Assembly: GCF_003410055.1 (NCBI RefSeq)
Contig: NZ_QUZK01000042.1
Coordinates: forward strand, 124,001 to 188,000
Reading direction: 5' to 3'
DNA from: Wenzhouxiangella sediminis
Lineage (GTDB): Bacteria; Pseudomonadota; Gammaproteobacteria; Xanthomonadales; Wenzhouxiangellaceae
DNA length: 64,000 bases
Part shown: piece by piece, positions 7,041 to 63,957 of the stretch
Layout: each line of letters opens with the position of its first letter
How positions within the stretch are numbered: the first letter of the stretch is position 1
Program-made: the position numbers and the translations under genes
Notes under the pieces: generated by a model
Seen by the model: only the letters and a program-made list of their open reading frames with translations
What the model was told of the DNA's origin: nothing
Database searches by the model: none

Positions 7041-7213
7041 AGGTTTCAGGTTTCAGGTTTCAGGGTTCAGGTTTCAGGGTTCAGGGTTCAGGGTTCAGGG
7101 TTCAGGGTTCAGGGTTCGGACGTAGGGTTTCGGCTATTGGCGGCCCATCCAGCCGCAGGCATCCGAAACACCAGCACGCACCGAAGCCTCATTTGTTCCT
7201 GAAACCTGAAACC
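7041..7213. repeat. inverted tandem-array element E1 (7-bp unit AGGTTTC/AGGGTTC)
   Basis: The left array, 7041-7117, is eleven head-to-tail 7-bp units (AGGTTTC, drifting to AGGGTTC). The right array, 7198-7213, is just over two units in reverse orientation (CCTGAAA). The core of about 80 bp contains a smaller inverted pair GTTTCGG/CCGAAAC. The right edge touches the DUF971 stop codon (7214-7216). Seven of the left units carry a GGG run and the last six are consecutive, so the plus strand has G-quadruplex potential. Three open-frame translations across the array are repeat artefacts. Confidence 0.9.
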
Positions 7214-7564
7214 TTATTCCATTCCCGCTTCCTTCAGTCGCTGTCGGTAACGGGCCACATTGCTTTCCATGCGACTGCCCAGATCATAAAGGAAAGCCCA
7301 TGAATAAATGCCGGAATCGTGGCCGTCGTCGAAGGTGATCTGGACCGCATAGCTGCCGACGGGCTCGATCGCGGTGATGTCGACGTTTTCCTTGCCGGTC
7401 ATCAACTTCGGCTCCGAGTAGCCGTGCCCGCGAACCTCGGCCGAGGGCGAGTGCGTGCGCAGGTACTCGGCGGGCAGCTCGAATCGCTCGCCGTCGTCGA
7501 AGCTCACGATCAGTGTGCGCCTGGAACGCTCGTAGTGCAGTTCGAGGGCTTCGACTCCGCTCAT
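7214..7564 (-). CDS. DUF971 / gamma-butyrobetaine hydroxylase-like N-terminal domain protein
   Basis: Small standalone domain (116 aa) resembling the N-terminal domain of gamma-butyrobetaine hydroxylases. In proteobacteria it is frequently encoded next to ubiE, as here, but its role is not well defined. Visible features are LIVSFDDGERFELPAEYLRTHSPSAEV, a beta-rich fold, and VDITAIEPVGSYAVQITFDDGHDSGIYSW. I chose ATG 7564, which overlaps the stop of the upstream transporter by 4 bp (ATGA), rather than a longer N-terminal extension. Followed immediately by repeat element E1. Confidence 0.8.
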   Translation of the reverse strand: MSGVEALELHYERSRRTLIVSFDDGERFELPAEYLRTHSPSAEVRGHGYSEPKLMTGKENVDITAIEPVGSYAVQITFDDGHDSGIYSWAFLYDLGSRMESNVARYRQRLKEAGME

Positions 7565-9153
7565 GGCGCCTCGTAGTAGGTCGGCGAGCCCGGGCCGACC
7601 GGGAGGTCGAGGCCGAACACCCACAGCAGGAACAGCAGGCTCCAGCCGATGAAGTAGCAGATCGAGTAAGGCAGCATGGTGGCGATCAAGGTGCCGATGC
7701 CGAATTTCTTGTCGTAGCGCGTCGCCCAGGCGAGGATCAGGCCGAAGTAGCTCATCATCGGTGTGATGATGTTGGTGGTCGAGTCACCGATGCGGTAGGC
7801 GGTCTGGATGACCTCCGGCGAGTAGCCGATGAACATCAGCATGGGCACGAAAATCGGTGCGGTCACGGCCCACTGCGCCGAGGCCGAGCCGAGCGACAGG
7901 TTGACGATGCCGCACATGATGATGAACAGCACGAAGACCATCGGCCCGGTCAGGCCGATGTTCTGCAGGAATTCCGCGCCCGTGACCGCCGTGATCAGGC
8001 CGAGGTTCGACCAGCCGAAGAAGGCCACGAACTGGGCGGCGAAGAACACCAGCACCACGTAGAGGCCCAGCGTGGAGATCGCCGAGGACATGCCGTCGAT
8101 CACGTCGCGGTCGTTCCTCATGGTGCCCACGACCTTGCCGTAGGCAAAGCCCACGACGAGGAAGAAGACGAAGATCCAGGCGACGATCGAGTCGAAGAAG
8201 GGACCCGACGAGGCCAGGAAGTCGCTGCCGGCCTCCGGGTCCCGCAGCACGCCGTTTTCGGGGACGACCAGCAGGGCGATCAGCCCGAGCACAGCGACGG
8301 TGGCGACTGCGGCGGTACCCAGCCCCTTCTTCTCCGAACCGGAGAGCGGCTTCATCTGGCTGTCGTCGAGTACCGAGGGATCGGCATTCGAGTCGTCGTA
8401 CTTGCCCAGCTTGGGCTCGACGATGAAGATCGTCACCAGCGAGCCGATGATCGTGATCATGAAAGTCGACACGATCATGAAATACCAGCTTGCCGTCGCG
8501 TAGACGGTGTAGCCGGGATCGATCAGCTGCGCGGCTTCCTCGGTGATGCCGGCCAGCAGGGGGTCGATCGTGCCCAGCAGCAGGTTGGCGCTGTAGCCCC
8601 CCGACACGCCGGCGAAGGCCGCGGCCATGCCGGCCAGGGGATGTCGGCCCAGGGCGAGAAAGATGGCGCCACCCAGGGGCACCAGCACCACGTAGCCCAT
8701 TTCCGAGGCCGTGTTCGAAAGCACGCCGGCGAAGACGACGGCGACGGTCACGACATGCTTGGGCGCCGAAAGCACAATGCCGCGCACGAGGGCCGAGAGC
8801 AGGCCTGACTTCTCGGCGACGCCCACACCCAGCATGGCGACCAGCACCACGCCGAGCGGCGCGAAGTTGACGAAATTGTCGACCAGGCCGCCGAGGATCC
8901 GCCGCAGGCCTTCGGCGTTGAGCAGGCTGACCGCCTCGATGGTGGCACCGGCCGCCGCGCTGGGCCGCGGGTCCTCGACGCTCAGCCCGATCCAGCCGAA
9001 GAATCCGGACAGGAAGACCATGGCGGTCGCGAGAATGGCGAACAGGGTGACCGGATGGGGCAGGAGGTTGCCGAGCCACTCGACGACGTCGAGGAAGCGG
9101 GTGAACCAGTTGCGATTGGCGACGGCGGCCGCCGAGTTGTCGTTGTTGCTCAC
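7561..9153 (-). CDS. AbgT-family aminobenzoyl-glutamate/antimetabolite transporter
   Basis: Inner-membrane ion-coupled transporter of the AbgT family (AbgT, MtrF). Known members move p-aminobenzoyl-glutamate or export sulfonamides. The 530 residues have about 9-11 hydrophobic segments starting at LPHPVTLFAILATAMVF, and the family's re-entrant motifs NTASEMGYVVLVPLGGAIF, GGYSANLLLGTIDPLLAGIT and GDSTTNIITPMMSYFGLIL. I chose GTG 9153 over the upstream in-frame ATG 9216 because AGGGAC sits about 8 nt before it and the extension runs into the inverted-repeat region. Overlaps the DUF971 gene start by 4 bp. Substrate not determinable from sequence. Confidence 0.85.
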   Translation of the reverse strand: MSNNDNSAAAVANRNWFTRFLDVVEWLGNLLPHPVTLFAILATAMVFLSGFFGWIGLSVEDPRPSAAAGATIEAVSLLNAEGLRRILGGLVDNFVNFAPLGVVLVAMLGVGVAEKSGLLSALVRGIVLSAPKHVVTVAVVFAGVLSNTASEMGYVVLVPLGGAIFLALGRHPLAGMAAAFAGVSGGYSANLLLGTIDPLLAGITEEAAQLIDPGYTVYATASWYFMIVSTFMITIIGSLVTIFIVEPKLGKYDDSNADPSVLDDSQMKPLSGSEKKGLGTAAVATVAVLGLIALLVVPENGVLRDPEAGSDFLASSGPFFDSIVAWIFVFFLVVGFAYGKVVGTMRNDRDVIDGMSSAISTLGLYVVLVFFAAQFVAFFGWSNLGLITAVTGAEFLQNIGLTGPMVFVLFIIMCGIVNLSLGSASAQWAVTAPIFVPMLMFIGYSPEVIQTAYRIGDSTTNIITPMMSYFGLILAWATRYDKKFGIGTLIATMLPYSICYFIGWSLLFLLWVFGLDLPVGPGSPTYYEAP

Positions 9154-9267
9154 GGATGAAGTCCCTGCGTTTGGTCCGGAATGCCGCCGCGGCAGCGACC
9201 CGGCATGATAGCGCAAGGTCGCTGCGGGTGCAGTCGACGGACCGGGCGGGCGCGTTCGGGGATCCGA

Positions 9268-9456
9268 CCGGGCCGGGGTGGATCCGCCTCAGTTCGACGC
9301 GTGGCGAGGCCTTCGGCGAATCCACCCCGGCCCGGCCGGACGAGGCCGGCTGAAAGCACATGGTTCCATCTTTGGCAGCGAGGCCTGATCGTCGCGGGAC
9401 GATCCGCTGAGGGCCTCGCCACGCGTCGAACCGAAGCGGATCGTCCCGCGGCGATC
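9268..9456. repeat. element E2: two inverted hairpin modules with identical-type loops and different stems
   Basis: Module 1 has stem 9268-9288 / 9315-9335 (20 of 21 pairs) and a 26-nt loop at 9289-9314. Module 2, in the opposite orientation, has stem 9387-9408 / 9435-9456 (21 of 22 pairs) and a 26-nt loop at 9409-9434. Read in module orientation the loops are identical at 24 of 26 positions (common block GTTCGACGCGTGGCGAGGCC), whereas the outer stem sequences are unrelated. This fills the gap between the GntP-type gene's stop (9489) and the AbgT start (9153). The rest of the 335-bp gap shows no gene. Confidence 0.85.
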
Positions 9457-9488
9457 GGGCCGCCTCTGCTGTCCCCGCGCTGGCAGGG

Positions 9489-10802
9489 TCACAGGCCCAG
9501 AGCGAACAGGCCCAGGCAGAGGATCAGTCCGGCGACCGGGATCAGGACGGTCAGCGCACCCATGGCCGGGTAGGCGGCCGAGTGGGTCTCGTTGCAGATG
9601 GCGCGGATGGTGGTGACCACGTATCCGTTGTGCGGCAGCGAGTCGAGCGCGCCCGAGGAGATCGAGACCACGCGGTGCAACTGATCGGGGTCGACGCCGG
9701 CATCGACGTAGTGGGGCCCGAGGATCGGCAGGGCGATGGCCTGGCCACCCGAGGCCGAGCCGGTCATGGCGGCGATGGCGGATACCGCGATCGCGGCGCT
9801 GACCAGGCCGTTGCCGGGCAGGCCGGTGACCCAGACCACGGCGGCGTCGAAGGCGGGCGAGACCTTGGCCACGGTGCCGAAGCCGACCACGGCGGCGGTG
9901 TTGCCGATGGCGACCAGCGCTCCGACGCCGCCTTCGGTGAGCGCCTCGCCGGGCTGGTGCAGGTGGCGCAGGTTGATCAGCGCCGCGCCGATGCACCCGG
10001 CCAACAGGGCCACGATCAGCGCCGAGATGCCGAGCCGGTCGTGCAGGGTGAAGGAAAAGCCCAGCACCAGCAGCAGGGGCACCAGGGCCAGGACCGGGTT
10101 GGGCAGGTCGCCGCGCCCGCTTTCGGGATCGGCCTCGCGTTCCTCGAAGCGCTCGCCGCGGGCGACGGCGCGTTTGAGCATCCACTTCAGCCAGAAGTAG
10201 CCCGTGGTGGCCATGAAGATCGCCACCACCAGGCTGGCCTGCCAGGCCGCCAGCGGTCCGGTTCCGAGATGCTCTATGGGGATCCAGTTCTGAATCTCGG
10301 GCGAGCCGGCGGATGTCATGGTGAAGGTCACCGAGCCGAAGGCCAGGGTGGCGGGAATGAATCGCCGCGGCAGTTCGGCATCCCGGAACAATGCCAGCGC
10401 CATCGGGTAGACGGAGAAGGCGACCACGAACAGGCTCACGCCGCCGTAGGTGAGCACGGCGCAGGCGATGACCACGGCGAGGGCGGCGTGGTGCGTGCCG
10501 AGCCGCCGCACGATCCAGTGCGCCACCGACTCGGCGCCGCCGGAAGATTCCATCAGCTTGCCGAACAGCGACCCCAGCAGGAAGACGAAGAACCAGGAGG
10601 CGATGAAGCCGGTAAAGCCGTTCATGTACTGCGTGATCAGGTCGGCCTGTCCTTCGGCCGCCAGCGGGGGCAGCAGGGCGATGTCGCTGGTCAGCGCGAC
10701 GAGCAGGGCGCACAGAGGCGTGGCCACGAACAGGCTCATGCCGCGCATGACGAGTACGATCAACAGGGCGAGGCCGCCCAGCAGGCCGATCAGGCTGAGC
10801 AT
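9489..10802 (-). CDS. GntP-family permease (gluconate/hydroxyacid:H+ symporter type)
   Basis: Polytopic inner-membrane transporter of 437 residues with about 12 hydrophobic segments. Family signatures include the GxxxF-rich FVFLLGSLFGKLMESSGGAESVA stretch (about 65-87), LTYGGVSLFVVAFSVYPMAL, FTMTSAGSPEIQNWIP, AMTGSASGGQAIALPILG and the C-terminal SSGALDSLPHNGYVVTTI. GntP-family members take up gluconate, hydroxybutyrate and related organic acids; the exact substrate is unknown. I chose ATG 10802 because translation then begins with the first membrane segment. The in-frame extension to 10841 lacks a hydrophobic or conserved sequence. Same strand as, but not overlapping, the AbgT gene; separated from it by element E2. 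Confidence 0.82.
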   Translation of the reverse strand: MLSLIGLLGGLALLIVLVMRGMSLFVATPLCALLVALTSDIALLPPLAAEGQADLITQYMNGFTGFIASWFFVFLLGSLFGKLMESSGGAESVAHWIVRRLGTHHAALAVVIACAVLTYGGVSLFVVAFSVYPMALALFRDAELPRRFIPATLAFGSVTFTMTSAGSPEIQNWIPIEHLGTGPLAAWQASLVVAIFMATTGYFWLKWMLKRAVARGERFEEREADPESGRGDLPNPVLALVPLLLVLGFSFTLHDRLGISALIVALLAGCIGAALINLRHLHQPGEALTEGGVGALVAIGNTAAVVGFGTVAKVSPAFDAAVVWVTGLPGNGLVSAAIAVSAIAAMTGSASGGQAIALPILGPHYVDAGVDPDQLHRVVSISSGALDSLPHNGYVVTTIRAICNETHSAAYPAMGALTVLIPVAGLILCLGLFALGL

Positions 10803-10857
10803 GATGGATGCTTCCGCTTGAATTCGCGGCCATGTTGGCAAGCCCCCGCGCGGGGCG

Positions 10858-10879
10858 GAACTGTACCAAGGTACAAGTT
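10858..10879. promoter_or_regulatory. inverted repeat in divergent intergenic region (candidate operator)
   Basis: TGTACC-AA-GGTACA (10862-10875) is a perfect 6-bp inverted pair flanked by a further AAC/GTT pair. It lies midway between the divergent GntP-type gene (start 10802) and the TonB-dependent receptor (start 10988), a natural position for a shared operator. No clear sigma-70 hexamers were found in the same 185 bp. Confidence 0.35.
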
Positions 10880-10987
10880 ACACGCCCGTGCCGCTTGTCT
10901 AGTCTGCGAAGCGTGTCGGTCGCTCGCGTTGCGAGGCGACGAAAACAACTAGAGCGAGCAAGCATTCGTCTATCGAAGGGAGTTGAA

Positions 10988-13396
10988 ATGAAATCGCTGA
11001 AGCAGTCCAAGAATTCGCCCCGGCTGTCGAGGCTGAGCCTGGCCATCGTGCTGGGCCTGGCCATGACCACCGCGGTATCGGCCCAGGACGAACAGTCCGA
11101 AGATAACAACGAAGGCGAGGCGGCCGAGGAGTCGACCGACCTGGGCAATCTCGAAGTGACCGCCCGGCGCCGCACCGAAAACCTGCGCGACGTGCCCATT
11201 TCGGTCACCGCGATCACCGGCGAAGGCCTGCAGGATGCCGGTGCCCAGGACATCACCTATCTGAACCAGGTGGTGCCCAACACCACCCTTGAAGTCTCGC
11301 GCGGCACTAGCAACACGCTGACCGCCTTCATTCGCGGCATCGGCCAGCAGGACCCGGTCGCCGGCTTCGAGGCCGGTGTCGGCATCTATATCGATGATGT
11401 CTACCTCAACCGACCGCAGGCGGCGGTGCTCGACATCTACGACGTGCAGCGCGTGGAAGTGCTGCGTGGTCCGCAGGGCACGCTCTATGGCCGCAATACG
11501 ATCGGCGGCGCCGTCAAGTACGTGACCAAGCGCCTTGGCCGCCAGCCTTCGGCGAGCGTGCGCGCCAGCGTCGGCAGCTACAACCAGGCCGACCTGGTGG
11601 TCAAGGGCGAGACCCCAATCGGCGATTCGTTCGCCGTGGGTGGCGCCCTGGCCACATTCAACCGCGATGGCTTCGGCGACAACCTGACCACCGGCCTGGA
11701 CAACTACAACAAGGAAGTGATGGCCGCCCGGGCCAGCATGGAATGGACGCCGACTTACAACCTGTTCGTGCGTCTATCCGGCGATTACTACAAGGATGAT
11801 TCCAACCCGGTCGGTGGCCATCGCCTGATACCGGGCCTGTTCTCCGGAGCGCCGGTCCTCGACGACGTCTACGACTCGCGCGGCGGCATCACGGGCGAGA
11901 ACGAGACCGAGCAGCAGGGTCTGAGCCTGCTGGTCGAATACGACATCAACCCCAATTGGCTTTTCAAGAGCATCACCGCTTGGCGGGAAGACGACACGAT
12001 CAACCAGATCGACTTCGAGGCCCTTCCGCCGGTCGACCTCGATGTCGCGACCATCTATGAAAACGAGCAGTTCAGCCAGGAGTTCCAGCTCAACTATTCC
12101 GGCGAGAACGTCACCGGCGTGGCCGGCTTCTACTATCTCGATGCCAACGCCTTCGGGCCCTTCGACGTCCGCCTCTACCAGACGGGCGAATTGATCGGTG
12201 CGCCGCAGCTCAACGCCTTCACCCTGGGCGATGTGGATACCGAGACCTGGTCGGTCTTCGCCGACGCCAGCTTCGACCTGGCCAACATGTTCGACCTGAA
12301 TACGGGTCTGGAACTGTCGGTCGGCGGTCGCTACACCAACGACAAGCGTTCCTCGCGCGTGCTGCGCCAGAACATGCTGGGTGCCTCGTCCTGGTTTGGC
12401 GGGGATCCGATCGTCATCGCAACCACGTCGGACTTCGAGGGCTCGGACACCTTCAACGAGTTCACGCCGCGTGCCAGCCTCGCCTGGCAGCCGACGACCA
12501 ACCAGAACTTCTACGTGTCCTGGAGCCAGGGGTTCAAGGGCGGCAGCTTCGACCCGCGCGGCCTGACCACCGCCGCACCCGATTTCAACGGGGACGGCAC
12601 GGTCAGCGAAGACGAGGTGTTCGAGTTCATGCGCTTCGAGCCGGAGACCGTGGACACCTACGAGATCGGCGCCAAGTCATCCTTCGCCGACGGTCGCGTC
12701 AACACCAGCCTGGCTTTCTTCTACAGCGATTACACCGACATCCAGGTGCCCGGCTCGATTGGCGTCGACAACAACGGCGACGGTATCGCCGACACTTTTG
12801 CCGGGGTGACCACCAATGCCGGTGCGGCCACGGTCCAGGGCGTGGAGTTCGAGATGAATGCACTGCTGGGCCGTAACATGGCCGCGCAGGGCGATGCGCT
12901 CACTACCATGCTGACGCTGGGTTATATCGACGCGGAGTACGACGAATTCATCACTTCGGTCACCAATCCGGCCACGGGCGAGACCGCGCTCGAAGACGTC
13001 TCGGACCAGCGTGTGTTCCAGAACACCCCCGACTGGACGGGTCACTGGAACATGCGCTACGACACGCCGATGTCCCTGTTCGGCAGCGACGGGCTGTTCT
13101 CCATCATCGGCGCCTGGTCGTACCGGGGCGAGACGAACCAGTTCGAGGTGCCTTCGCAATTCCTCGACCAGGACGCGTACTCGCTCTATGACCTGCACCT
13201 GATCTGGGAGCGCAACGACGGTCGCTACCAGATCGGCCTGCACGGCCGCAATCTCAGCGACGAGCAGTACAAGACCTCCGGCTACGTGTTCGCCACCCCG
13301 GACGGCAGCGCGTCGACCCTGGGCCTGGAAGGGGTGATGAACGCCTTCTACGGTCCGCCGCGGACGGTCACCCTGACCGCCACGGTCAACTTCTGA
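10988..13396 (+). CDS. TonB-dependent outer-membrane receptor
   Basis: Outer-membrane active transporter energised by TonB. The 802 residues start with a signal peptide (about 1-33, ending TTAVSAQD), then an acidic linker and the TonB-box-like NLEVTARRR. The plug domain follows (DVPISVTAITGEGLQDAG, VLRGPQGTLYGRNTIGGAV), then a 22-strand-type barrel ending in TLTATVNF with terminal Phe. I chose ATG 10988, preceded by GGGAG; the in-frame extension upstream is not supported. The absence of a CTD/STN domain argues against direct anti-sigma signalling. The ligand is unknown; adjacency to a GntP-type permease would fit uptake of an organic acid or sugar derivative. A strong terminator follows. Confidence 0.92.
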   Translation: MKSLKQSKNSPRLSRLSLAIVLGLAMTTAVSAQDEQSEDNNEGEAAEESTDLGNLEVTARRRTENLRDVPISVTAITGEGLQDAGAQDITYLNQVVPNTTLEVSRGTSNTLTAFIRGIGQQDPVAGFEAGVGIYIDDVYLNRPQAAVLDIYDVQRVEVLRGPQGTLYGRNTIGGAVKYVTKRLGRQPSASVRASVGSYNQADLVVKGETPIGDSFAVGGALATFNRDGFGDNLTTGLDNYNKEVMAARASMEWTPTYNLFVRLSGDYYKDDSNPVGGHRLIPGLFSGAPVLDDVYDSRGGITGENETEQQGLSLLVEYDINPNWLFKSITAWREDDTINQIDFEALPPVDLDVATIYENEQFSQEFQLNYSGENVTGVAGFYYLDANAFGPFDVRLYQTGELIGAPQLNAFTLGDVDTETWSVFADASFDLANMFDLNTGLELSVGGRYTNDKRSSRVLRQNMLGASSWFGGDPIVIATTSDFEGSDTFNEFTPRASLAWQPTTNQNFYVSWSQGFKGGSFDPRGLTTAAPDFNGDGTVSEDEVFEFMRFEPETVDTYEIGAKSSFADGRVNTSLAFFYSDYTDIQVPGSIGVDNNGDGIADTFAGVTTNAGAATVQGVEFEMNALLGRNMAAQGDALTTMLTLGYIDAEYDEFITSVTNPATGETALEDVSDQRVFQNTPDWTGHWNMRYDTPMSLFGSDGLFSIIGAWSYRGETNQFEVPSQFLDQDAYSLYDLHLIWERNDGRYQIGLHGRNLSDEQYKTSGYVFATPDGSASTLGLEGVMNAFYGPPRTVTLTATVNF

Positions 13397-13426
13397 GTTC
13401 CGTGAGTCCCGCTTGACTCTCCTTTC

Positions 13427-13452: not shown

Positions 13453-13540
13453 TTGGGGTTCCGCAACAGACGAGGTGCCGTGAGTCCGTTGCTTCTAAAC
13501 TGTTGGTCATGAGCACACGTCTTTCTTTGCCGGTACATCC

Positions 13541-19312: not shown

Positions 19313-19394
19313 ACGAGTTGGCTTGTTATCTGGTCGGCTGGTTGGCTCGTTGTCGCCGTAACCAGCCAACCAGCCAACGAGCGAACCAGCCAAC
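19313..19394. repeat. inverted tandem-array element E3 (8-bp unit AACCAGCC)
   Basis: Starts immediately after the oleA stop. Left 8-bp units of TGGTTGGC type (clearest 19331-19354) face right units AACCAGCC, AACCAGCC, AACGAGCG, AACCAGCC (19360-19391) across a core of only about 5 bp. The transcript would form one long imperfect hairpin between oleA and oleB. Confidence 0.85.
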
Positions 19395-20303: not shown

Positions 20304-20609
20304 ATTGTGTCCACAGATGAACACAGATGAACACAGATCAAAAACTCTGTTATTCGAGCGTTTGAATGTTGCCTTGGTGCCAGGCTTTCCAAGTTGAGAG
20401 TTGCTAGCGCCAATGAGCATCCAGCGAAGCAATTCGTAGCAGGTTGGTCGTTTCTGTCATTCGAATTTCGGTAATTGGAATTTGTTTGATATTTGGTGCT
20501 TGGAATTTGAGATTTTCGGCGCCGGATGAATGGTTGGATGGACGAGTGCCCCAATCTCTGATTATCGGCACACCCAATCTGTGTTTATCTGTGTTCATCT
20601 GTGGACAAT
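20304..20609. repeat. inverted tandem-array element E4 (10-bp unit ACACAGATGA) with AT-rich core
   Basis: The left arm (about 20304-20339) carries three ACACAGATGA-type decamers after AATTGTGTCC; the right arm (about 20576-20609) is the near-exact reverse complement. The 236-bp core is markedly AT-richer than its surroundings and includes a second repetitive tract (about 20458-20520) with recurring GGAATTTG. It fills the 340 bp between oleB and oleC; no gene is seen in it. The left arm begins 10 bp after the oleB stop. Confidence 0.88.
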
Positions 20610-22290: not shown

Positions 22291-22680
22291 TCTCACGCAG
22301 AGACGCAGAGTTCGCAGAGGAAAGGATGAGTAGAAGGCGGGCACATCCAGTTTTAGCGCGACAACCAGATGCGTGGGTGAGGCTGAGCCGTCGCCTTAGT
22401 TCACGCCAAGGCGCAAAGGCGCGAAGTTCGCCAAGAGATTAGATAAAGAAAAGAGCGAGGAAGCTGAAATGTCCATTCCCGGGGCAATTCAGAGTTCCGC
22501 GGGCTTGATTCATTGGCTGGCTTTCTTCGCGATCTTGGCGTCGTTGCGGCTTGGCGTGAAAATAGACAACGTCGCGGGCTTCTGCACAAACCGAGTTTCA
22601 GCTCAGGAGCCTTGGAGCACCCGCTTTATCCTTCGTTATTTGCTCTGCGAACTCCGCGACTCTGCGGCTCTGCGTGAGGC
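22291..22680. repeat. nested inverted tandem-array element E5 (8-bp units ACGCAGAG outside, ACGCCAAG inside)
   Basis: Two inverted pairs are nested. The outer arms are 22291-22330 (ACGCAGAG, ACGCAGAG, TTCGCAGAG) and about 22629-22680 (reverse complement). The inner arms are 22400-22442 (ACGCCAAG, GCGCAAAG, GCGCGAAG, TTCGCCAAG) and about 22516-22561. Inner and outer units share the pattern N-C-G-C-N-R-A-G and both end in a 9-bp TTCGC variant. It fills the gap between oleC and prpD; no gene supported. It starts 12 bp after the oleC stop. Confidence 0.87.
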
Positions 22681-48353: not shown

Positions 48354-49675
48354 AGCCGTTTAATCGCCTCCTCACCGGCGGGCTGCGCACCCGGCTGGTG
48401 CGCGTTTTCCTGTTGCAGGTGCTGGCGATCAGTATCGCCACCGTTCTCGGTGTCTACGCCGCAGCCTGGGTGGTCGAGCGCGTACTGGTCCAGGAAGCCC
48501 TGAACGGGGAGGCGGAATACTTCTGGAATCACTACGAGGACAATCCGGATTTTCCGCTTCCCGATACGAATAATCTGACTGCCTACATGGCGCAGAACGG
48601 CGACCCTTCCAGTGTTCCGGGATGGCTTCGTGACGAGACGCCGGGCTTCCGGCGGGGGCATCGTCACGACGATTCATCTCCCGTGATTCACGTATCGCAG
48701 CGCGGTGACGAGCGTCTGTATCTGGTGTTCGACGAAATGCAGGTGTCTTCCCTGGCCTGGTATTTCGGGGTTGCGCCCCTGACCGGTGTGCTGCTTCTGA
48801 TCTACCTGCTGACCTGGCTTGGTTACATCATGTCCCGGCGGGCCGTCTCGACGGTTGTCCAACTGGCGGATGCCGTTCGCAATTACGATTTCCGTTCGGG
48901 CCAGCTGGAGGAGCTCAGCGAGGAAGCCTTCGGCGAAACCACCGATACCGAAACCCTGGCTTTGATCAACGCCTTCAACCAGTTCATCCATCGCCTCGAG
49001 TCCTTCATCCAGCGCGAACGCAACTTCACGCGCAACGCGAGCCACGAGTTGCGAACGCCCCTGGCGGTTCTTCGATCGAATCTGGGGCTTCTCGCCAAGC
49101 AGAGTGATCCCGAGGCGAGGGCCAAGACGGTGGAGCGGATGAACCGGACCGTGCGCGACATGGAGGCGCTCGTCGAGACCCTGCTGATCCTCGCACGCGA
49201 GAGCGAGTCGCGCCTGAACTGGTCGTCGGTGGTTCTCAACGACCTGCTCGCCGACCTGCTCGAGCAGATCGCATCGACTTTCGACCGGCCGGAGGTGACC
49301 ACCGGAGTGCGCGCCAACGGCCTGCTCGAAATCAGCGCGCCCGAACGGGTGCTGGCCATCGTCTTCACCAACCTGCTGCGCAATGCCCTGAGCTACACCG
49401 AGAAGGGGCATGTGCACGTTCTGGTCGACCGCAACGGCGTGACCATTCAGGATTCCGGCTGCGGCATGGCCGAGACGGATCTCGAGCGCATGTTCGAGCC
49501 TTTCTACCGGGGGCATGACCGCTCCAACGAGGGATACGGCCTGGGCCTGTCCATCGTCCGCCGCCTGTGCGACCGATTCGGCTGGCACCTGCACGCCGAC
49601 AGCGAACTGGGCGCCGGCACCGAGATCCGCGTCGAATTCCCCCAGGCGACCTTCAAGCCCTTCGGAAGTAACTAG
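48350..49675 (+). CDS. sensor histidine kinase closing the lipid operon
   Basis: 441 aa with two membrane segments (about 18-40 and 141-162) flanking a periplasmic domain of roughly 100 residues. A HAMP-like linker follows, then HisKA with RNASHELRTPLAVLRSNL (His about 231) and HATPase_c (NLLRNALSYTEKGHV, DSGCGMAE, GYGLGLSIVRRL). No response regulator is adjacent; the nearest OmpR-type regulator is at 55021-55725, beyond the mevalonate operon. Translationally coupled (4-bp overlap) to the second CFA-like gene, so it is made together with the lipid enzymes and may sense the membrane they modify. Its TAG stop is part of the first 7-bp unit of repeat element E6. Confidence 0.88.
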   Translation: MKPFNRLLTGGLRTRLVRVFLLQVLAISIATVLGVYAAAWVVERVLVQEALNGEAEYFWNHYEDNPDFPLPDTNNLTAYMAQNGDPSSVPGWLRDETPGFRRGHRHDDSSPVIHVSQRGDERLYLVFDEMQVSSLAWYFGVAPLTGVLLLIYLLTWLGYIMSRRAVSTVVQLADAVRNYDFRSGQLEELSEEAFGETTDTETLALINAFNQFIHRLESFIQRERNFTRNASHELRTPLAVLRSNLGLLAKQSDPEARAKTVERMNRTVRDMEALVETLLILARESESRLNWSSVVLNDLLADLLEQIASTFDRPEVTTGVRANGLLEISAPERVLAIVFTNLLRNALSYTEKGHVHVLVDRNGVTIQDSGCGMAETDLERMFEPFYRGHDRSNEGYGLGLSIVRRLCDRFGWHLHADSELGAGTEIRVEFPQATFKPFGSN

Positions 49676-49891
49676 GGTTCAGGTTTCAGTGTTCAGGTTT
49701 CAGGAGCGCGTGGCGAAGCCCGAGAGTGCGTTGCCTAAAAGCCTGGTGTCGTGCTGGCCGGAAACATAGCGTGAACGAAGACACGGGCAGTCCTGAATGC
49801 GTCGACACTGCTTTCCCGAACCCGGAACCCCTTTATCCTTTACCTGAAACCTGAAACCTGAAACCTGAAACCTGAAACCTGAAACCTGAAA
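49674..49891. repeat. inverted tandem-array element E6 (7-bp unit AGGTTTC)
   Basis: The left array, 49674-49701, has four units (AGGGTTC, AGGTTTC, AGTGTTC, AGGTTTC), the first overlapping the TAG stop of the sensor kinase. The right array, 49843-49891, has seven perfect CCTGAAA units. The core of about 140 bp includes GCGTTGCCTAAAAGCC (49728-49743), shared in opposite orientation with element E9. It occupies almost all of the gap before mvaD. Confidence 0.92.
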
Positions 49892-52010: not shown

Positions 52011-54279
<2,269 letters not shown>

Positions 54280-54290
<11 letters not shown>

Positions 54291-54867: not shown

Positions 54868-55020
54868 TTGGTTTTTTTGGTGTTTTAGTATTTTGGTGTT
54901 TTGGTAGGGGCAGGCTCCAGAGCCTCGTGCATCAAGTCGAGGCCCCGGCGCCGTCGAGCAACCAAAAAACCAAAAAACCAAAAAACCAACGAACCAACGA
55001 ACCAAAAAACGAACGAACCG
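54868..55020. repeat. inverted tandem-array element E7 (8-bp unit AACCAAAA)
   Basis: The left array, 54868-54907, has five 8-bp units of TTTGGTGT type. The 52-bp core is 54908-54959. The right array, 54960-55020, has seven-plus units (AACCAAAA x3, AACCAACG x2, AACCAAAA, AACGAACG). The element exactly fills the gap between the convergent stop codons of idi (54865-54867) and the response regulator (55021-55023). The core is homologous to that of E8. Confidence 0.9.
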
Positions 55021-55802: not shown

Positions 55803-55942
55803 TTCGGTTCTTTGGTGTTTTAGTGCTTTAGTGTTTTGGTAGATCGGGGCTCCGTAGCCGCCCGGGTGAATTCGGAGCCCCGGCGCCGTGTAGCAACCAA
55901 AAAACCAAAAAACCAAAAAACCAACGAACCAAGGAGCCAGAT
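55803..55942. repeat. inverted tandem-array element E8 (8-bp unit AACCAAAA)
   Basis: The left array, 55803-55842, has five 8-bp units (TTCGGTTC, TTTGGTGT, TTTAGTGC, TTTAGTGT, TTTGGTAG). The 52-bp core, 55843-55894, contains the perfect stem GGGGCTCCG/CGGAGCCCC. The right array, 55895-55934, has five units. It stands 8 bp from the rho stop codon (55943-55945). Same core length and orientation as E7, with about 34 of 52 core bases identical. Confidence 0.9.
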
Positions 55943-57452: not shown

Positions 57453-57779
57453 TCAGATGGTTTCTTCGACGAAGGACTTCAGCGCGGACTTGGTCAGCGC
57501 GCCCACCTTGGTGCCCTGGTGCTCGCCGTTTTCGAAGATCATCAGGGTCGGAATGCCGCGAATCTTGTAGCGGCTGGTCACCTGCTGGTTCTCGTCGATG
57601 TTCAGCTTGGCGATTTTCAGGCGGCCGCCGTACTCGTCGGCCAGCTCGTGCAGGATGGGCTCGATCATCTTGCAGGGGCCGCACCATTCGGCCCAGTAGT
57701 CGACCAGCACCGGTCCGTCGGCCTTGAGGACGTTTTCCTCGAAATCGCTGTCGGTTACATGAATGATGTTGTCGCTCAC
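57453..57779 (-). CDS. trxA: thioredoxin 1
   Basis: 108-residue cytoplasmic disulfide reductase. The active site [13 protein letters not shown] has Cys33 and Cys36; cis-Pro lies in [10 protein letters not shown]. It matches E. coli TrxA in length and order of motifs. Divergent from rhlB and upstream of rho, the arrangement seen in many Gammaproteobacteria. Confidence 0.96.
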
Positions 57780-57857
57780 GGCTCGTATTGCTCCTTGGAA
57801 TAGGGGTTTGCGGCGGCCATTTGCGCCCGCGCTCGGCAGAACCGGGCAATTGACAAT

Positions 57858-57886
57858 ATACTATGCCACGCTCGCCTGTGTGTTGA
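57858..57886 (-). promoter_or_regulatory. candidate trxA promoter
   Basis: On the minus strand, TCAACA (57881-57886) and TAGTAT (57858-57863) are separated by 17 bp, each 4 of 6 to consensus. A leader of about 70 nt would precede trxA. Confidence 0.35.
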
Positions 57887-57982
57887 CTCCCCCTGAAACC
57901 GGGTCGCGATGGCTCGACGCCGTCCGGGGTCACACGCAAGGTCAAGGCAATTCACCAGAATTTCAAGGACTACATCATTTCC

Positions 57983-59278: not shown

Positions 59279-59300
59279 ACCCGAAGAGCCCGCTATTGCC

Positions 59301-59414
59301 CGCGTAGGTCGGGGTCGTCTCCCCGACGGACGAGGTCTCGGGCCTGTGCACGAATCGCGATGTGTCTTCCGGGCTGAGACGTGGTCCGTCGGGGGTGCGA
59401 CCCCGACCTGCGGA
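59301..59414. repeat. inverted hairpin element E10 (GTCGGGGT family)
   Basis: Arm 59301-59343 and arm 59374-59414 are near-perfect reverse complements of each other (shared blocks AGGTCGGGGTCG, CCCCGACGGAC, GTCTC). Each arm contains its own smaller hairpin GTCGGGG/CCCCGAC. The core is about 30 bp. It begins 22 bp after the rhlB stop and precedes gspC; the remaining sequence to 59503 shows no gene. Confidence 0.85.
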
Positions 59415-59503
59415 GCCATGGATCACGCCGTTTCTCCCCTCCGAACCGCGGCCGGTCTGTGCTAATCTCCCGCCAGAACCAACCCTCCGGAGTCGACTGG
59501 TCC

Positions 59504-60391
59504 GTGTCCGCCATGATGTCACCCGCCTGGTCCTCGCGACTGGCCTTGTTGAGCAGCGCGCTACTGGCGCTGGCGGTGGTCTGGCTGCTGGTGCGCTCGC
59601 TGTGGCTGGTGGTCGGGGGCGTCTCGGTGGCGTCGGTGCCTGCGCTGGCCGTTCCCGAGGTGTCGGAAATCGGCGGTGCGAGCGGCGAGTTCCGTTGGAA
59701 CCTGTTCGGTCGTTCCGCGTCGCCGGCGGTGATGCTCCAGCCGGTTCCGGTTTCCGACAGCCGTCTTCGCCTCAAGGGTGTCATGAGCGGCGAGCGCGGC
59801 TACGCGATCATTTCGGTCAGCGGCTCGGGTGAAGACGTCTACCGCGTCGGCGACGAGTTGCCCGGTGGCGGCGAGGTCGAGGCCATCGAATCGCGCCGCG
59901 TCATCATCGTTCGCAACGGTCGCCGCGAGACCCTGGCGCTGGATCCCGACGCCGTCTCCAGCGGCCCCGCGTCCGGCCGCCCGGGCCGCGATGATCGGGT
60001 GGCAGAGGAGCCTTCGCGGCAACTCCCGGGCATCCGGGGATTCAGTGCCCCCGCCGGGGCCAGCGTCGCATCCTTGCCCGATGCGGCTCGCTCGCTCGGG
60101 CTGGATGCCGGTGCACTGGCCCAGTCAATTTCGGCCATGCCCGTCGCGGGGGGTGGATTCCGCGTGCGACCCGGGCGCGACGCTCGGCTGTTCCAGGAAC
60201 TGGGCCTTCAGGTCAACGACGTGGTCGTGGCGGTCAACGGTCAGCCGCTCGAAACCGCCCAGGGAGTCCAGCGGCTGTTCGCCGACGTGCTGTCGCGCGG
60301 AGAAGTCGCCATCACGGTGCGCCGCGACGGCCGCGAGATGACGCTGCGACCCGATATCGAGCAAATCATGGGGAGTCTGCAATCAAGATGA
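59504..60391 (+). CDS. gspC: type II secretion system protein GspC
   Basis: Inner-membrane-anchored periplasmic component linking the assembly platform to the secretin. Of its 295 residues, one membrane segment lies at about 8-32 (SSRLALLSSALLALAVVWLL). A homology-region domain follows (FRWNLFGRSA... SRLRLKGVMSG, EDVYRVGDELPGGGEVEAI), then a C-terminal PDZ-like domain (RDARLFQELGLQVNDVVVAVNGQPL). I chose GTG 59504; ATG 59513/59516 are alternatives. The frame extends upstream into element E10, which I treat as noncoding. The stop overlaps the gspD ATG. Confidence 0.87.
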   Translation: MSAMMSPAWSSRLALLSSALLALAVVWLLVRSLWLVVGGVSVASVPALAVPEVSEIGGASGEFRWNLFGRSASPAVMLQPVPVSDSRLRLKGVMSGERGYAIISVSGSGEDVYRVGDELPGGGEVEAIESRRVIIVRNGRRETLALDPDAVSSGPASGRPGRDDRVAEEPSRQLPGIRGFSAPAGASVASLPDAARSLGLDAGALAQSISAMPVAGGGFRVRPGRDARLFQELGLQVNDVVVAVNGQPLETAQGVQRLFADVLSRGEVAITVRRDGREMTLRPDIEQIMGSLQSR

Positions 60392-62328
60392 TCAAACAAC
60401 TACGACTGGCCGCCGTTCTGCTGGTGCTGTCGCTGCCGGCCCCGGCGCAGGAAGCGGCCGACGAGAACGGGCACGTGCTCAACTTCAAGGACGCCGACAT
60501 CCGGGCGCTGATCACGGCCGTGGCCGACATGACCGGCCGCTCGATCATCGTCGACCCGCAGGTGACCGGGCAGGTGACGGTGATTTCCTCGCAGTCGCTG
60601 GACGAAGACGAGGTGTGGGACGTTTTCCAGTCGATCCTGCGCGTGCACGGCTACGCCGCGGTGGGCGACGAGCAGACCGTTCGCGTCGTGCCCGACGTCA
60701 ACGCCCGCCAGGACGGTCGCGTACCGGTCGACGACATGCGCGGCGGGGGCGACGAGCCCGTCACGCGCATCATCCAGCTCGAGCACGTCGACGCCGCCGA
60801 GGTTTCGCAGTTGCTGCGCCAGCTGCTGCCCCAGTCGGCCTACATGGTGCACCACGAAAGCTCCAATAGCCTGATCATCAGCGACCGGGCCAGCAATATC
60901 CGGCGCGTCGAAACGATCATCGACCGCCTCGACGCGGCCATCGACCAGGAAGTCGAGGTGATCGCCCTGTCTCATGCCGACGCCGCCGAGGTGGTCCAGC
61001 TGATCAACCAGATCTACCCGGCCAACGGGGGCGCCCAGTCCGCCGTGGCCGATGAGCGGACCAACACCGTCGTGCTCTCCGGCGATCCGGCGCGTCGCCT
61101 TCGGCTTCGCACCCTGATCAGCCATCTCGACACGCCGTTGGAGTCCGAGGGCAGCACGCAGGTCATCTACCTGCGCTACGCCACGGCCGACACGCTCGTG
61201 CCGGTGCTCGAGGGCATGCTCGAGCTCGACGCCGAAGAGGGCGCGAAGGCCCGCATCCAGGCGCACGGCGAGACCAATGCGCTGGTCGTGACGGCGCCGC
61301 CGTCGGTGTACCGTTCGATCGAGTCGGTCGTCGACCAGCTCGACGTGCGCCGCGCGCAGGTTCTGGTCGAGGCCATCATCGCCGAGGTGGCCATGGACAC
61401 CAGTCGCGAGCTGGGCATCCAGTGGCAGGCCTTCGAGTCGGGTGACTCCGGCTTCTTCGGCGGCACCAACTACCAGAGCGGCGGCAACAACATTCTCAAT
61501 CTCTCGGCCGGGCTGGGCGGCGCCGGCGAAGAAGGCAACCTGCTCCTGCCCGGTCGCGGGCTGAACCTGGGATATGTCGGCGGCACGACCAGCCTGCTCG
61601 GGGTCGAGTTGCTCGAGATCGGTGGCCTGGCCCGCGCCCTGGCCAGCGACTCCAACACCAACGTCCTTTCGACGCCGTCGATCGTGACCCTCGACAATCA
61701 CGAAGCGAGCATCAACGTGGGCCAGGAAGTGCCGTTCCTTTCGGGCAGTTATTCCACCCAGGGGGTGGCGACCGGGGAAGGGCAGGTCAATCCCTTCCAG
61801 ACGATCAATCGCGAAGAAATCGGCGTGAAACTCAACGTCACCCCGCATATCAACGAGGGCGATACCATCATGCTCGACATCTCGCAGGAAGTCTCGGACC
61901 TGGCGCCCTCGGCCGGAGCGGTGGACCTGATTACCAGCAAGCGCACGATTTCCACCCGCGTGATGGTGCCTGACGGCTCGATGCTGGTGCTCGGCGGGCT
62001 GATCAGAGACGACTTGCAGGAAGGTCGCGAGGAAGTGCCGGGCCTCGGCCGGATTCCGCTGCTCGGCGAGCTGTTCCGCTACCGCACGACCAGCAAGGTC
62101 AAGCGCAACCTGATGGTCTTCATCCGGCCGCAGATCCTGCACGACAAGGAATTGGTGGACAGCGTCACGCGTTCGAAGTACACGCGCATTCGCGACCTCC
62201 AGCTCGAGCAGCGCGAGGCGGTCGACGGCCTGAGCCGCAAGTCGCAGATGCCCCTGCTGCCCGAACTCGAGGCGTTCATGCAGGCCGCTCCCGAGAATGC
62301 GGGAGACGCGGGCAGCGATGGCCGGTGA
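60388..62328 (+). CDS. gspD: type II secretion system secretin GspD
   Basis: Outer-membrane channel of the type II secretion system, 646 aa: signal peptide (1-20, LSLPAPAQ), N0 domain (HVLNFKDADIRALITAVADMTGRSIIVDPQVTGQVTV), N1-N3 repeats (RIIQLEHVDAAEVSQLLRQLLPQ; IALSHADAAEVVQLINQIYP; VIYLRYATADTLVPVLEGML) and the secretin domain (VLVEAIIAEVAMDTSRELGIQW; VGQEVPFLSGSY; GVKLNVTPHINEGDTI; GLGRIPLLGELFRYR). ATG 60388 overlaps the gspC stop. Confidence 0.95.
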   Translation: MIKQLRLAAVLLVLSLPAPAQEAADENGHVLNFKDADIRALITAVADMTGRSIIVDPQVTGQVTVISSQSLDEDEVWDVFQSILRVHGYAAVGDEQTVRVVPDVNARQDGRVPVDDMRGGGDEPVTRIIQLEHVDAAEVSQLLRQLLPQSAYMVHHESSNSLIISDRASNIRRVETIIDRLDAAIDQEVEVIALSHADAAEVVQLINQIYPANGGAQSAVADERTNTVVLSGDPARRLRLRTLISHLDTPLESEGSTQVIYLRYATADTLVPVLEGMLELDAEEGAKARIQAHGETNALVVTAPPSVYRSIESVVDQLDVRRAQVLVEAIIAEVAMDTSRELGIQWQAFESGDSGFFGGTNYQSGGNNILNLSAGLGGAGEEGNLLLPGRGLNLGYVGGTTSLLGVELLEIGGLARALASDSNTNVLSTPSIVTLDNHEASINVGQEVPFLSGSYSTQGVATGEGQVNPFQTINREEIGVKLNVTPHINEGDTIMLDISQEVSDLAPSAGAVDLITSKRTISTRVMVPDGSMLVLGGLIRDDLQEGREEVPGLGRIPLLGELFRYRTTSKVKRNLMVFIRPQILHDKELVDSVTRSKYTRIRDLQLEQREAVDGLSRKSQMPLLPELEAFMQAAPENAGDAGSDGR

Positions 62329-63796
62329 GTTCCGGCCCGGCTATGGATTCGCGCGCAAGCGCGGCGTGGCGGTGGCCGGTCACGACGCCGGCGGCCGCCA
62401 CCGGCTGGTTGTCCGTGAACCGGTCGATGTGGTCGCCGTGCAGGAAGTGCGCCGCCGCCTCGACGGTCCGGTGCAGGTCGAGCGCCTGCCTGCCGCCGAT
62501 TTCGATCGGCTGATCACTGAGCTCTACGAGGCCGACGACGCCGCGGCGCGTCACGCCGCCGAAGATCTCGGCGAGGACCTGGACCTGTCCCGGCTGGCCG
62601 AGGACCTGCCCGAGCCCGCCGACCTGCTGGAGTCCGAGGATGACGCACCGATCATCCGTCTGATCAACGGCGTGCTCACCCAGGCCATCCGCGAGGGTGC
62701 CTCCGATATCCATCTCGAGCCTTTCGAGGAGCGCTTGTCGATTCGCTTCCGCGTCGACGGCGTGCTGCGCGAGGTGATGACGCCGGCCCGTGGCCTGGCA
62801 GGCCTGATCGTCTCGCGCATCAAGGTCATGGCGCGGCTCGACATCGCCGAAAAGCGCGTGCCGCAGGACGGCCGGATCGGCCTGCGCATCGCTGGCCGGC
62901 CGGTCGACGTGCGTGTATCGACCCTGCCTTCGAACCACGGCGAGCGGGTCGTGCTGCGCCTGCTCGACAAGCAGGCCGGCCGCCTCGACCTGGCCGAACT
63001 TGGCATGGACGAGGCCACGCGTGATCGCATGGAAGCGCTGATCCAGCGGCCACACGGCATCCTGCTGGTGACCGGGCCGACCGGCTCGGGCAAGTCGACC
63101 ACCCTCTACGCTTCGCTCATGCGGCTCAACGATCGCAGCCGTAACATCATGACGGTCGAAGATCCGATCGAGTACGACCTCGACGGCATCGGCCAGACGC
63201 AGGTCAACCCCAAGGTCGACCTGACTTTCGCGCGCGGCCTGCGCGCGATCCTGCGCCAGGATCCCGACGTGGTGATGGTCGGCGAGATCCGCGACCTCGA
63301 AACCGCCCGTATCGCGGTGCAGGCCAGCCTGACCGGTCACCTCGTTCTCTCGACTCTGCATACGAACACCGCCGTCGGTGCCATTCCGCGCCTGGTCGAC
63401 ATGGGCGTGGAGCCTTTCCTGCTCGCCTCGAGCCTGATCGGCGTGCTGGCCCAGCGCCTGGTCCGCGTCCTCGATCCGGCCGCTCGCGAGGCCTACACGC
63501 TGGAGGCCGCCGAGTTACAGCGCCTGGGCGTGCAGACCGGGGACGGCGCCACCCTCTACCGACCGCGCCCCGACCTGCCGGCGGACCAGTCCGGCTACCA
63601 CGGCCGCACCGGCATCTACGAACTGGTGCCGGTCAACGAGGCGATGCGCGGGCTGATCCACGACGGCGCAGCCGAACAGGCCCTGGAAAAGCTGGCCCGG
63701 GAGCTGGCGCCTTCGATCTTCGAGGACGGCTGGCGGAAAGCTCTGGCAGGCACAACCAGCCTGGAAGAAGTGTTGCGGGTGACGAGGACGGCGTGA
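62318..63796 (+). CDS. gspE: type II secretion ATPase GspE, lacking the tetracysteine motif
   Basis: Cytoplasmic secretion ATPase, 492 aa. Visible: N-terminal domain, GASDIHLEPFEERLSIRFRVDG, Walker A VTGPTGSGKSTTLYA (about 248-262), Asp box TVEDPIEYDLDG, Walker B ILRQDPDVVMVGEIRD and the His box HLVLSTLHTNTA. Canonical GspE proteins carry a zinc-binding CxxC...CxxC insertion before GYHGRTGIYEL. Here that region (about 400-430) contains no Cys, and none occurs in the whole protein. I chose ATG 62318, overlapping gspD by 11 bp; ATG 62297 lacks a ribosome site. gspF follows after element E9. Confidence 0.93.
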   Translation: MAGEFRPGYGFARKRGVAVAGHDAGGRHRLVVREPVDVVAVQEVRRRLDGPVQVERLPAADFDRLITELYEADDAAARHAAEDLGEDLDLSRLAEDLPEPADLLESEDDAPIIRLINGVLTQAIREGASDIHLEPFEERLSIRFRVDGVLREVMTPARGLAGLIVSRIKVMARLDIAEKRVPQDGRIGLRIAGRPVDVRVSTLPSNHGERVVLRLLDKQAGRLDLAELGMDEATRDRMEALIQRPHGILLVTGPTGSGKSTTLYASLMRLNDRSRNIMTVEDPIEYDLDGIGQTQVNPKVDLTFARGLRAILRQDPDVVMVGEIRDLETARIAVQASLTGHLVLSTLHTNTAVGAIPRLVDMGVEPFLLASSLIGVLAQRLVRVLDPAAREAYTLEAAELQRLGVQTGDGATLYRPRPDLPADQSGYHGRTGIYELVPVNEAMRGLIHDGAAEQALEKLARELAPSIFEDGWRKALAGTTSLEEVLRVTRTA

Positions 63797-63801
63797 TGAT
63801 G

Positions 63802-63957
63802 AGGTTTCAGGTTTCAGGTTTCAGGTTTCAGGAATCCCTCGCTTCGGATCTGGCTGAGCGCCTGACGCAACCGTCCGGTGGCACGGTCAATGGCTTTTGG
63901 GCAACGCTCGTTCCGTGTTGCCAAGCGTCCCTGAAACCTGAAACCTGCAACCTGAAA
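63802..63957. repeat. inverted tandem-array element E9 (7-bp unit AGGTTTC)
   Basis: The left array, 63802-63829, has four perfect AGGTTTC units starting 5 bp after the gspE stop. The core of about 97 bp is 63833-63929. The right array, 63930-63957, has four units (CCTGAAA, CCTGAAA, CCTGCAA, CCTGAAA). The core block GGCTTTTGGGCAACGC (63892-63907) is the reverse complement (15 of 16) of a block in E6 at the same distance from its array. It splits gspE from gspF inside the secretion operon. Confidence 0.92.

What the first reader, a model, noticed from the sequence alone, without database searches (positions are those of the whole stretch)
7041..63957. Ten stop-codon-adjacent inverted array elements with one architecture and several unit families
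Seen directly: elements at 7041, 9268, 19313, 20304, 22291, 49674, 54868, 55803, 59301 and 63802. Each has two arms in inverted orientation around a core. In eight of them the arms are tandem short units of 7, 8 or 10 bp. Every one lies 0 to about 35 bp downstream of a stop codon on that gene's coding strand, whichever strand that is. Genes in this window that overlap by 4 bp carry none, but operons with gaps (ole, gsp) do. Unit families differ, yet placement and layout are the same, as if one process builds or tolerates them. Possible explanations: 3'-UTR structures that terminate transcription or protect mRNA, a non-autonomous mobile element targeting termini, or repeat addition by a reverse transcriptase or slippage. 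Strings like these occur in unrelated genomes from memory, but I know no function.
Basis: partly seen in the sequence, partly recalled or inferred. Interest (0 to 1): 0.88.

Follow-up and report, generated by a model that had tools for sequence, protein, structure and literature searches.

The report
Gene-end hairpins with interchangeable repeat words
Just after many genes of Wenzhouxiangella bacteria sit mirror-image stacks of 7-10-letter DNA repeats; the same gene ends tend to stay occupied from species to species while the repeated word is often swapped for an unrelated one, which suggests that place and shape matter more than sequence.

Summary
All ten elements exist as described; the genome is a Wenzhouxiangella. 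Eight have tandem 7-, 8- or 10-bp word arms; 9268 and 59301 are plain palindromes. In samples (0.80 Mb of this genome, 0.97 Mb of relative G010) tandem-armed inverted elements fill 77 of 636 stop-bearing gaps of 40 bp or more, but 5 of 206 divergent gaps and none of 2,424 shuffled gaps. Codirectional ones begin a median 8-9 bp after the stop. Paired arms keep one polarity per family, 86 of 86. New result: the address stays while the word changes. Of 24 occupied orthologous stop-bearing sites, 19 are also occupied in G010 (P 1e-11; P 0.005 among gaps free to vary in length). By word family 17 sites are shared; 12 of them carry different families. No reverse transcriptase or Y1 transposase was found in this genome. 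Closest known: Xanthomonas GGGAATC heptad arrays and REPINs. I favour REPIN-like non-autonomous arrays turning over at transcript 3' ends, kept because a hairpin there is harmless or useful. Mobility, machinery and function are not shown; pure tolerance is a serious rival.

The parts
7041..7213 (-). 7-bp word element (CAGGTTT/CAGGGTT), arms inverted round a unique core; short arm at the stop (7214), long arm next to the start of ubiE-like 6307-7032
   Evidence: UbiE match
9264..9458 (-). plain palindromic element, no tandem arms
19317..19394 (+). 8-bp word element (GGTTGGCT / AACCAGCC) after the oleA-like gene
20308..20607 (+). 10-bp word element (CACAGATGAA), with a half array of CAAATTC/GAAATTC type words inside; core inverted relative to G010
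22296..22666 (+). nested element: CGCAGAG arms outside, CGCAAAG/GGCGCAAAG arms inside
49678..49890 (+). 7-bp word element (CAGGTTT); the sister genome G009 has a CGCAAAG-type element at this site
54868..54997 (+). 8-bp word element (TTTTTGGT / ACCAAAAA) between the convergent IPP-isomerase and phoB-like genes; core related to 55803
55806..55930 (-). 8-bp word element (ACCAAAAA) after rho
59295..59419 (+). plain inverted palindrome after rhlB; by eye a GTAG-tagged REP-like pair
   Evidence: REP likeness by eye
63802..63960 (+). 7-bp word element (CAGGTTT) after the gspE-like gene

Best explanation
These are members of a large class of REPIN-like, non-autonomous inverted word arrays that occupy transcript 3' ends. 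Shown: each family is a 7-10-bp word repeated in tandem in two inverted arms of fixed polarity round a variable core; arrays lie close after stop codons; the same gene ends tend to be occupied in different species while the word family is often another one. Inferred: each family spreads in bursts by a copying process whose enzyme is unknown; arms grow and shrink by slippage; new families replace old ones, partly by landing inside them; and gene ends keep an array because a hairpin there is harmless and probably useful, as a barrier that defines or protects the mRNA 3' end or insulates neighbouring genes.
For: Placement: 25 of 29 (this genome) and 22 of 24 (G010) codirectional elements begin within 35 bp of the stop against 17.0 and 15.8 expected at random in the same gaps, P<=5e-5 each; 77 of 636 stop-bearing against 5 of 206 divergent gaps (P 5.5e-6). 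Polarity: 86 of 86 paired arms sense to antisense; single arms follow the rule in 23 of 26 codirectional and 10 of 11 convergent cases (counted). Address: 19 both, 5 here only, 14 G010 only, 121 neither (P 1.2e-11); codirectional gaps >=80 bp in both: 13, 1, 4, 21 (P 3.5e-6); gaps differing by >10 bp in length: 19, 4, 8, 12 (P 0.005); many genomes: 55 co-occupied pairs against 22.6 expected in gaps >=40 bp (P 2e-4). Word change: different family at 12 of 17 shared sites. Copying: 54868 and 55803 share a core, 82% over 123 nt; the 20304 element is 92% identical but inverted in G010 between flanking matches of 84 and 85%. Nesting: three of four gaps with two complete pairs are nested.
Against: No Y1 transposase or reverse transcriptase in this genome; other transposases were not searched. 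No target duplication or clean empty site resolved. Gaps empty in both species often have fixed lengths (within 10 bp: 20 such gaps >=40 bp, 19 empty in both, 1 occupied in G010 only), as tolerance alone predicts. Convergent gaps alone show no significant address effect (17 gaps, P 0.24). With the strict detector and both gaps >=40 bp the effect is not significant (P 0.26; 0.08-0.085). Terminator exclusion is inconsistent; the G.U excess may be base composition. Four named Wenzhouxiangella contigs (L061, L062, L063, L065) gave no tandem-armed element.
Confidence: 0.45

Rival explanations
1. Purely tolerated selfish repeats: several mobile word families saturate the only unconstrained spacer of a compact genome, the stretch between a stop codon and the next promoter. 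There is no function; address conservation only reflects which gaps can take an insertion.
For: Gaps with nearly equal length in both species are almost always empty (19 of 20 empty in both). Words are nearly absent from coding DNA and rare in divergent gaps. Families differ sharply in copy number between species. Nesting.
Against: Among gaps free to vary in length, co-occupancy is still above chance (P 0.005 at >=40 bp, 0.0008 at >=80 bp). Empty codirectional gaps with room exist (21 of 39 gaps >=80 bp are empty in both).
Confidence: 0.33
2. Locally grown 3' hairpins: gene-end hairpins under selection grow in place by slippage and by template switching between arms, so that words arise independently at each site.
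For: Long uniform arrays and length differences between species; placement and RNA foldability. By eye some words at one site in different species could be drifted versions of each other (oleA site).
Against: The same words recur at hundreds of places in one genome (367 copies of one 15-bp string) and in genomes of another class; polarity is fixed within families; two elements share a core.
Confidence: 0.12
3. Repeat addition templated by a reverse transcriptase.
For: Short, sometimes G-rich words in tandem at defined places.
Against: No PF00078 match in this genome, while the same search rings in 3 of 14 control genomes. The draft is 99.8% complete, not closed, and very divergent enzymes could be missed.
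Confidence: 0.03
4. Assembly artefact.
For: Some contigs begin in or near arrays.
Against: Similar arrays in separately assembled relatives, the oleA-site array nearly letter for letter in G009.
Confidence: 0.01

Closest known systems
GGGNATC heptad arrays of Xanthomonas and Nostoc (Rehm et al. 2015, PMC4692102; I saw the abstract, passages, and sections 14 and 15 whole)
   Same: Same order for Xanthomonas; 7-bp words in tandem; near the stop on the sense strand or near the next start on the antisense strand; rare between divergent genes; 70 and 75 inverted pairs in two genomes; [quoted passage not shown]
   Different: One word there, at least ten word families here; here the word at an orthologous gene end is often replaced. 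The paper says it found the heptads in Xanthomonas but not in other gammaproteobacteria (section 15) and stresses G-quadruplexes; most words here lack GGG runs.
REPINs and GTAG/CGTC REPs (PMC3116915, abstract and outline seen; PMC3733652, passages seen)
   Same: Inverted doublets with a spacer, extragenic, mostly after genes, hairpin-forming, several families, non-autonomous.
   Different: Arms here are tandem arrays of 7-10-bp words, not single 20-40-bp palindromes; no Y1/RAYT match in this genome. The plain elements 9268 and 59301 look more like REPs (by eye).
TAACTGA direct repeats of Beggiatoaceae (PMC4679880, passages seen)
   Same: Heptads in tandem in spacers, patchy over distant lineages, possible horizontal transfer.
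   Different: Almost never inverted, and mostly oriented towards start codons.
Inverted DNA-uptake-sequence pairs as terminators (Neisseria, Haemophilus; recalled)
   Same: Short words in inverted pairs after genes.
   Different: Uptake words are also common inside genes and not tandem (recalled); here word clusters were found in 0 of 347 and 0 of 474 coding stretches.

Membership tests
Xanthomonas-type heptad arrays (PMC4692102) | tandem 7-bp words in spacers | tested here: met
   Periods of tandem-armed elements: 7 in 14 of 37 here and 23 of 45 in G010; the others 8-11, so met for part of the class.
Xanthomonas-type heptad arrays (PMC4692102) | sense strand near the stop, antisense near the next start; inverted pairs | tested here: met
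   86 of 86 pairs in one polarity; 23 of 26 codirectional single arms follow the rule.
Xanthomonas-type heptad arrays (PMC4692102) | the word GGGNATC, able to form G-quadruplexes | not tested
   GGGNATC was not searched for and quadruplex potential was not computed; the words found have mostly no GGG run.
REPIN / RAYT system | inverted doublet with spacer in extragenic DNA | tested here: met
REPIN / RAYT system | Y1 transposase (PF01797) in the genome | tested here: not met
   0 matches in this genome; 3 in G010; 0 in the other 11 same-genus genomes; arrays equally dense in this genome and G010, 6.6 per 100 kb.
REPIN / RAYT system | GTAG or CGTC tag at the word | tested here: inconclusive
   Not seen in the tandem words (one search list); GTAG stands at the core edge of 54868 and 55803 and in 59301 by eye; no systematic test.
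MITE | terminal inverted repeats with target-site duplication | tested here: inconclusive
   Inverted ends present; no clean empty site was found among the gap pairs read by eye, so duplications could not be judged.
Intrinsic terminator | short G+C hairpin followed by a T run | tested here: not met
   Strict scan: 7 of 77 gaps with tandem-armed elements hold such a site anywhere (2 of 29, 2 of 6, 0 of 24, 3 of 18), 3 of 77 outside the element; the arrays as a class are not of this type.
Reverse-transcriptase-made repeats | reverse transcriptase in the genome | tested here: not met
   PF00078: 0 matches.

The most novel reading that the evidence does not exclude
Gene ends in this genus are functional addresses at which the conserved unit is the architecture (an inverted tandem-word hairpin just after the stop), not the sequence. 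An unknown copying system writes, erases and rewrites these addresses with different word families, some shared with a distant class, and the hairpin helps to set mRNA 3' ends.
Probability: 0.3. Interest if true: 0.87.

Novelty: new variant of a known kind. Interest (0 to 1): 0.7.

Why it matters
Repeats in bacterial spacers are usually studied one family at a time, by sequence. If place and shape persist while the sequence is replaced, family-based surveys miss the feature, and orthologous gene ends become a natural experiment: one site tested by evolution with unrelated hairpins. That makes the old question whether such repeats are useful 3' structures or tolerated parasites directly testable, by 3'-end mapping and single-site deletions, and it calls for a search for the copying enzyme.

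Tried and rejected
Reverse transcriptase origin: no PF00078 match here. RAYT/IS200 in this genome: no match, and arrays are equally dense here and in G010, which has three. Loss of the hairpin nuclease SbcD as the cause of unequal loads: no TIGR00619 match over the cut-off in any of the 13 same-genus genomes, several of them incomplete (weak partial matches in 10 of them), so at most it is permissive.

Exclusion between arrays and intrinsic terminators: a strict scan gave 3 of 77 versus 45 of 435, P 0.048 (convergent only 2 of 24 versus 14 of 47, P 0.036), but a looser scan of orthologous gaps gave 6 of 17 versus 7 of 24, P 0.74; not relied on. G.U excess as a sign of RNA selection: 235 G.T to 167 A.C in codirectional gaps (P 4e-4) and 99 to 127 in convergent ones, but T is over-represented in general; setting 235:167 against (TT+CT):(AA+AG) = 315:272 leaves an odds ratio of about 1.2 (arithmetic); inconclusive.

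The core-homology count (75 of 82) is inflated because degenerate words escaped my mask; only the long matches are used. The strict detector gave no significant co-occupancy when both gaps were >=40 bp (P 0.26 for G010; 0.08 and 0.085); reading the pairs showed that it missed weaker arrays, and I then used a looser family-agnostic test (inverted score >=16 or tandem score >=10). That change was made after seeing the data. The word-vocabulary test used words drawn from both genomes, and the ten families were grouped by eye. In the 80 loci the detector found 9 elements in 8 loci; one is a run of N, and by eye five are word arrays (L084, L113, L123, L131, L135). My gene caller failed on loci of G003 and G006 (2 and 3 genes), so their zeros carry no weight and they are missing from the address tests.

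Literature: exact word strings gave no relevant paper; topic searches gave the papers cited and none on word swaps at fixed gene ends. The library is open-access PubMed Central only.

Full report
What is there. [quoted passage not shown] Eight have arms made of tandem 7-, 8- or 10-bp words; 9268 and 59301 are plain palindromes that look like REP pairs by eye. The window is part of a 3.5-Mb draft genome in 54 contigs. Its rhlB gene finds four Wenzhouxiangella records, 75-82% identical, among its five best named relatives. Neighbouring genes include matches to ubiE, olefin-synthesis, mevalonate-pathway, phoB-like, rho, trxA, rhlB and gspC/D/E families. All ten spans fold as RNA better than shuffled versions.

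How common and where. I took stretches covering 0.80 Mb of this genome and 0.97 Mb of a relative, G010, whose contig C54 matches both 20-kb pieces of the window that were searched (main matches 77-88% DNA identity). I called genes with a simple codon-usage caller and looked for inverted repeats whose arms touch a tandem run. In this genome 29 of 238 codirectional, 6 of 43 convergent and 2 of 93 divergent gaps of 40 bp or more hold one; in G010 24 of 301, 18 of 54 and 3 of 113; shuffled gaps 0 of 1,065 and 0 of 1,359. Codirectional elements begin a median of 8 and 9 bp after the stop and end 50 and 33.5 bp before the next start; 25 of 29 and 22 of 24 begin within 35 bp of the stop against 17.0 and 15.8 expected if placed at random in the same gaps, P<=5e-5 each. 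Word clusters were found in 0 of 347 and 0 of 474 coding stretches.

Families and polarity. I distinguish ten word families, grouped by eye. CAGGTTT and CGCAAAG are commonest in this genome, GAAATTC, CACGGAA and GTGTGAAG in G010. One 15-bp CAGGTTT-family string occurs 367 times in this genome, 138 times in G009, 0-17 times in each of the other 11 same-genus genomes and never in the eight genomes sampled from other families of the order; the reversed control never occurs. In every family paired arms run sense to antisense, 86 of 86; 'sense' was defined from the first left arms seen, so the test is of consistency within families. Of codirectional single arms, 14 of 16 sense ones lie nearer the stop and 9 of 10 antisense ones nearer the next start (counted), the rule reported for Xanthomonas heptads (PMC4692102).

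Main new result: the address stays, the word changes. Of 159 orthologous stop-bearing gaps shared with G010, 19 hold an array or inverted repeat in both, 5 only here, 14 only in G010, 121 in neither (P 1.2e-11). Gap length does not explain it: codirectional gaps of 80 bp or more in both give 13, 1, 4 and 21 (P 3.5e-6), and gaps of 40 bp or more whose lengths differ by more than 10 bp give 19, 4, 8 and 12 (P 0.005). The 17 convergent gaps alone are not significant (P 0.24), nor was the strict detector on gaps of 40 bp or more (P 0.08-0.085). By word family 17 sites are occupied in both, and at 12 the family differs; 5 are the same, more than the 7% expected from independent draws. Over this genome, nine same-genus genomes and contigs of four named assemblies (sister G009 left out), gaps of 40 bp or more give 55 co-occupied pairs where 22.6 are expected, and 33 against 15.3 with this genome also left out (P 2e-4, the smallest value the test could give).

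Examples. After oleA, 8 of the 9 genomes compared carry an array: GGTTGGCT (this genome, G009), GTCGTTTC (G007), TTCGTTCG (G008), GAAATTC (G010), CAGGGTT type (G011, G012) and CTTGAAC type (G005); G002 has a 10-bp gap, and G006, seen only, has none by eye. By eye these fall into at least three unrelated kinds, since the first three could be drifted forms of one 8-bp word and CTTGAAC of CAGGGTT. After rho, 6 of 8 genomes are occupied: ACCAAAAA, GGACCAG type (G001, G004), AAGGGCGA (G005), AAAGGTA (G008), GGTTGGCT (G010); G002 and G012 are empty. The close sister G009 has a CGCAAAG-type element at 49674, where this genome and the more distant G010 have CAGGTTT. Of six gaps occupied in this genome or G009, five are occupied in both.

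How turnover may work. Sixteen of 153 gaps with word clusters hold two or more families. Of four with two complete pairs, three are nested one inside the other and one is of another arrangement; half arrays lie inside the other family's pair in 8 of 10 comparisons. The 20304 element is 92% identical to its G010 counterpart but inverted, between flanking matches of 84 and 85%, which fits separate arrivals of a recently active element at one address, or flipping between the inverted arms. The 54868 and 55803 elements share their core (82% over 123 nt). So some copying between sites happens, but I found no enzyme: no Y1 transposase and no reverse transcriptase in this genome. Other transposases were not searched, and no clean empty site or target duplication was resolved.

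Spread beyond the genus. The string ACAGATGAACACAGAT occurs in 16 of 398 genomes drawn from the phylum (this genome included), 13 of them in one family of another class; the reversed control occurs in none. Of the 15 other genomes, 4 show a full inverted pair in the same polarity at one or more fetched places; the other 11 show one arm or none by that rule. In the 80 loci such elements are rare: by eye five true word arrays, for example in Dokdonella and Pseudoxanthomonas contigs with GGGAATG and GGGATTG words, and none in the four Wenzhouxiangella contigs there.

Function. Placement and foldability suit an mRNA 3'-end hairpin; protection of mRNA by such hairpins is known for REP elements (recalled). 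In Xanthomonas, transcripts start or stop more often at quadruplex-forming heptads than at control heptads (PMC4692102, section 15). My own functional signs are weak: the G.U excess may be a base-composition effect, and the relation to intrinsic terminators is inconsistent. Pure tolerance in unconstrained spacer remains a serious rival: of 20 stop-bearing gaps of 40 bp or more with lengths within 10 bp in both species, 19 are empty in both.

Verdict. Observation confirmed and extended. By placement, polarity and layout it belongs with the Xanthomonas heptad arrays and resembles REPINs, but in this genome it is not a RAYT-dependent REPIN system. Word swaps at fixed gene ends were not found in the searches listed under Tried and rejected; I rate it a new variant of a known kind.

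Noticed in passing
window 52011-54290: One 759-aa gene joins an HMG-CoA reductase (residues 1-387, TIGR00532) to a mevalonate kinase (458-732, TIGR00549), beside diphosphomevalonate decarboxylase and IPP isomerase genes: a mevalonate pathway with a fused enzyme in a gammaproteobacterium.
   Followed up: no
G000:C3:97990, C7:77307, C14:134187, C14:145433, C14:146050 (gaps): Another repeat, around GACGCGAAGCGTCATCCCGGACCCCGATCCGGGACCT, recurs beside the word arrays; by eye it resembles CGTC-tagged REPs.
   Followed up: no
window 20308-20593 and G010:C54:38666-38951: The core of the 20304 element is inverted between this genome and G010 at 92% identity, between flanks of 84 and 85%.
   Followed up: partly
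13 same-genus genomes: No SbcD (TIGR00619) match over the cut-off in any of the 13 same-genus genomes searched, some incomplete; only weak partial matches. Lack of this hairpin nuclease could make long inverted repeats tolerable.
   Followed up: partly
G000 contigs C5, C9, C11, C15: Contigs begin in or within a few hundred bases of CAGGTTT arrays, so arrays probably break the assembly and are under-counted.
   Followed up: no
W:49676 and gaps at C3:48159, C7:98213, C7:101126, C14:115710, C14:134187, C14:146098; G010 C6:175173: A second word, GGGGTTCC/GGAACCCC, recurs inside or beside CAGGTTT arrays in seven gaps here and one in G010.
   Followed up: partly
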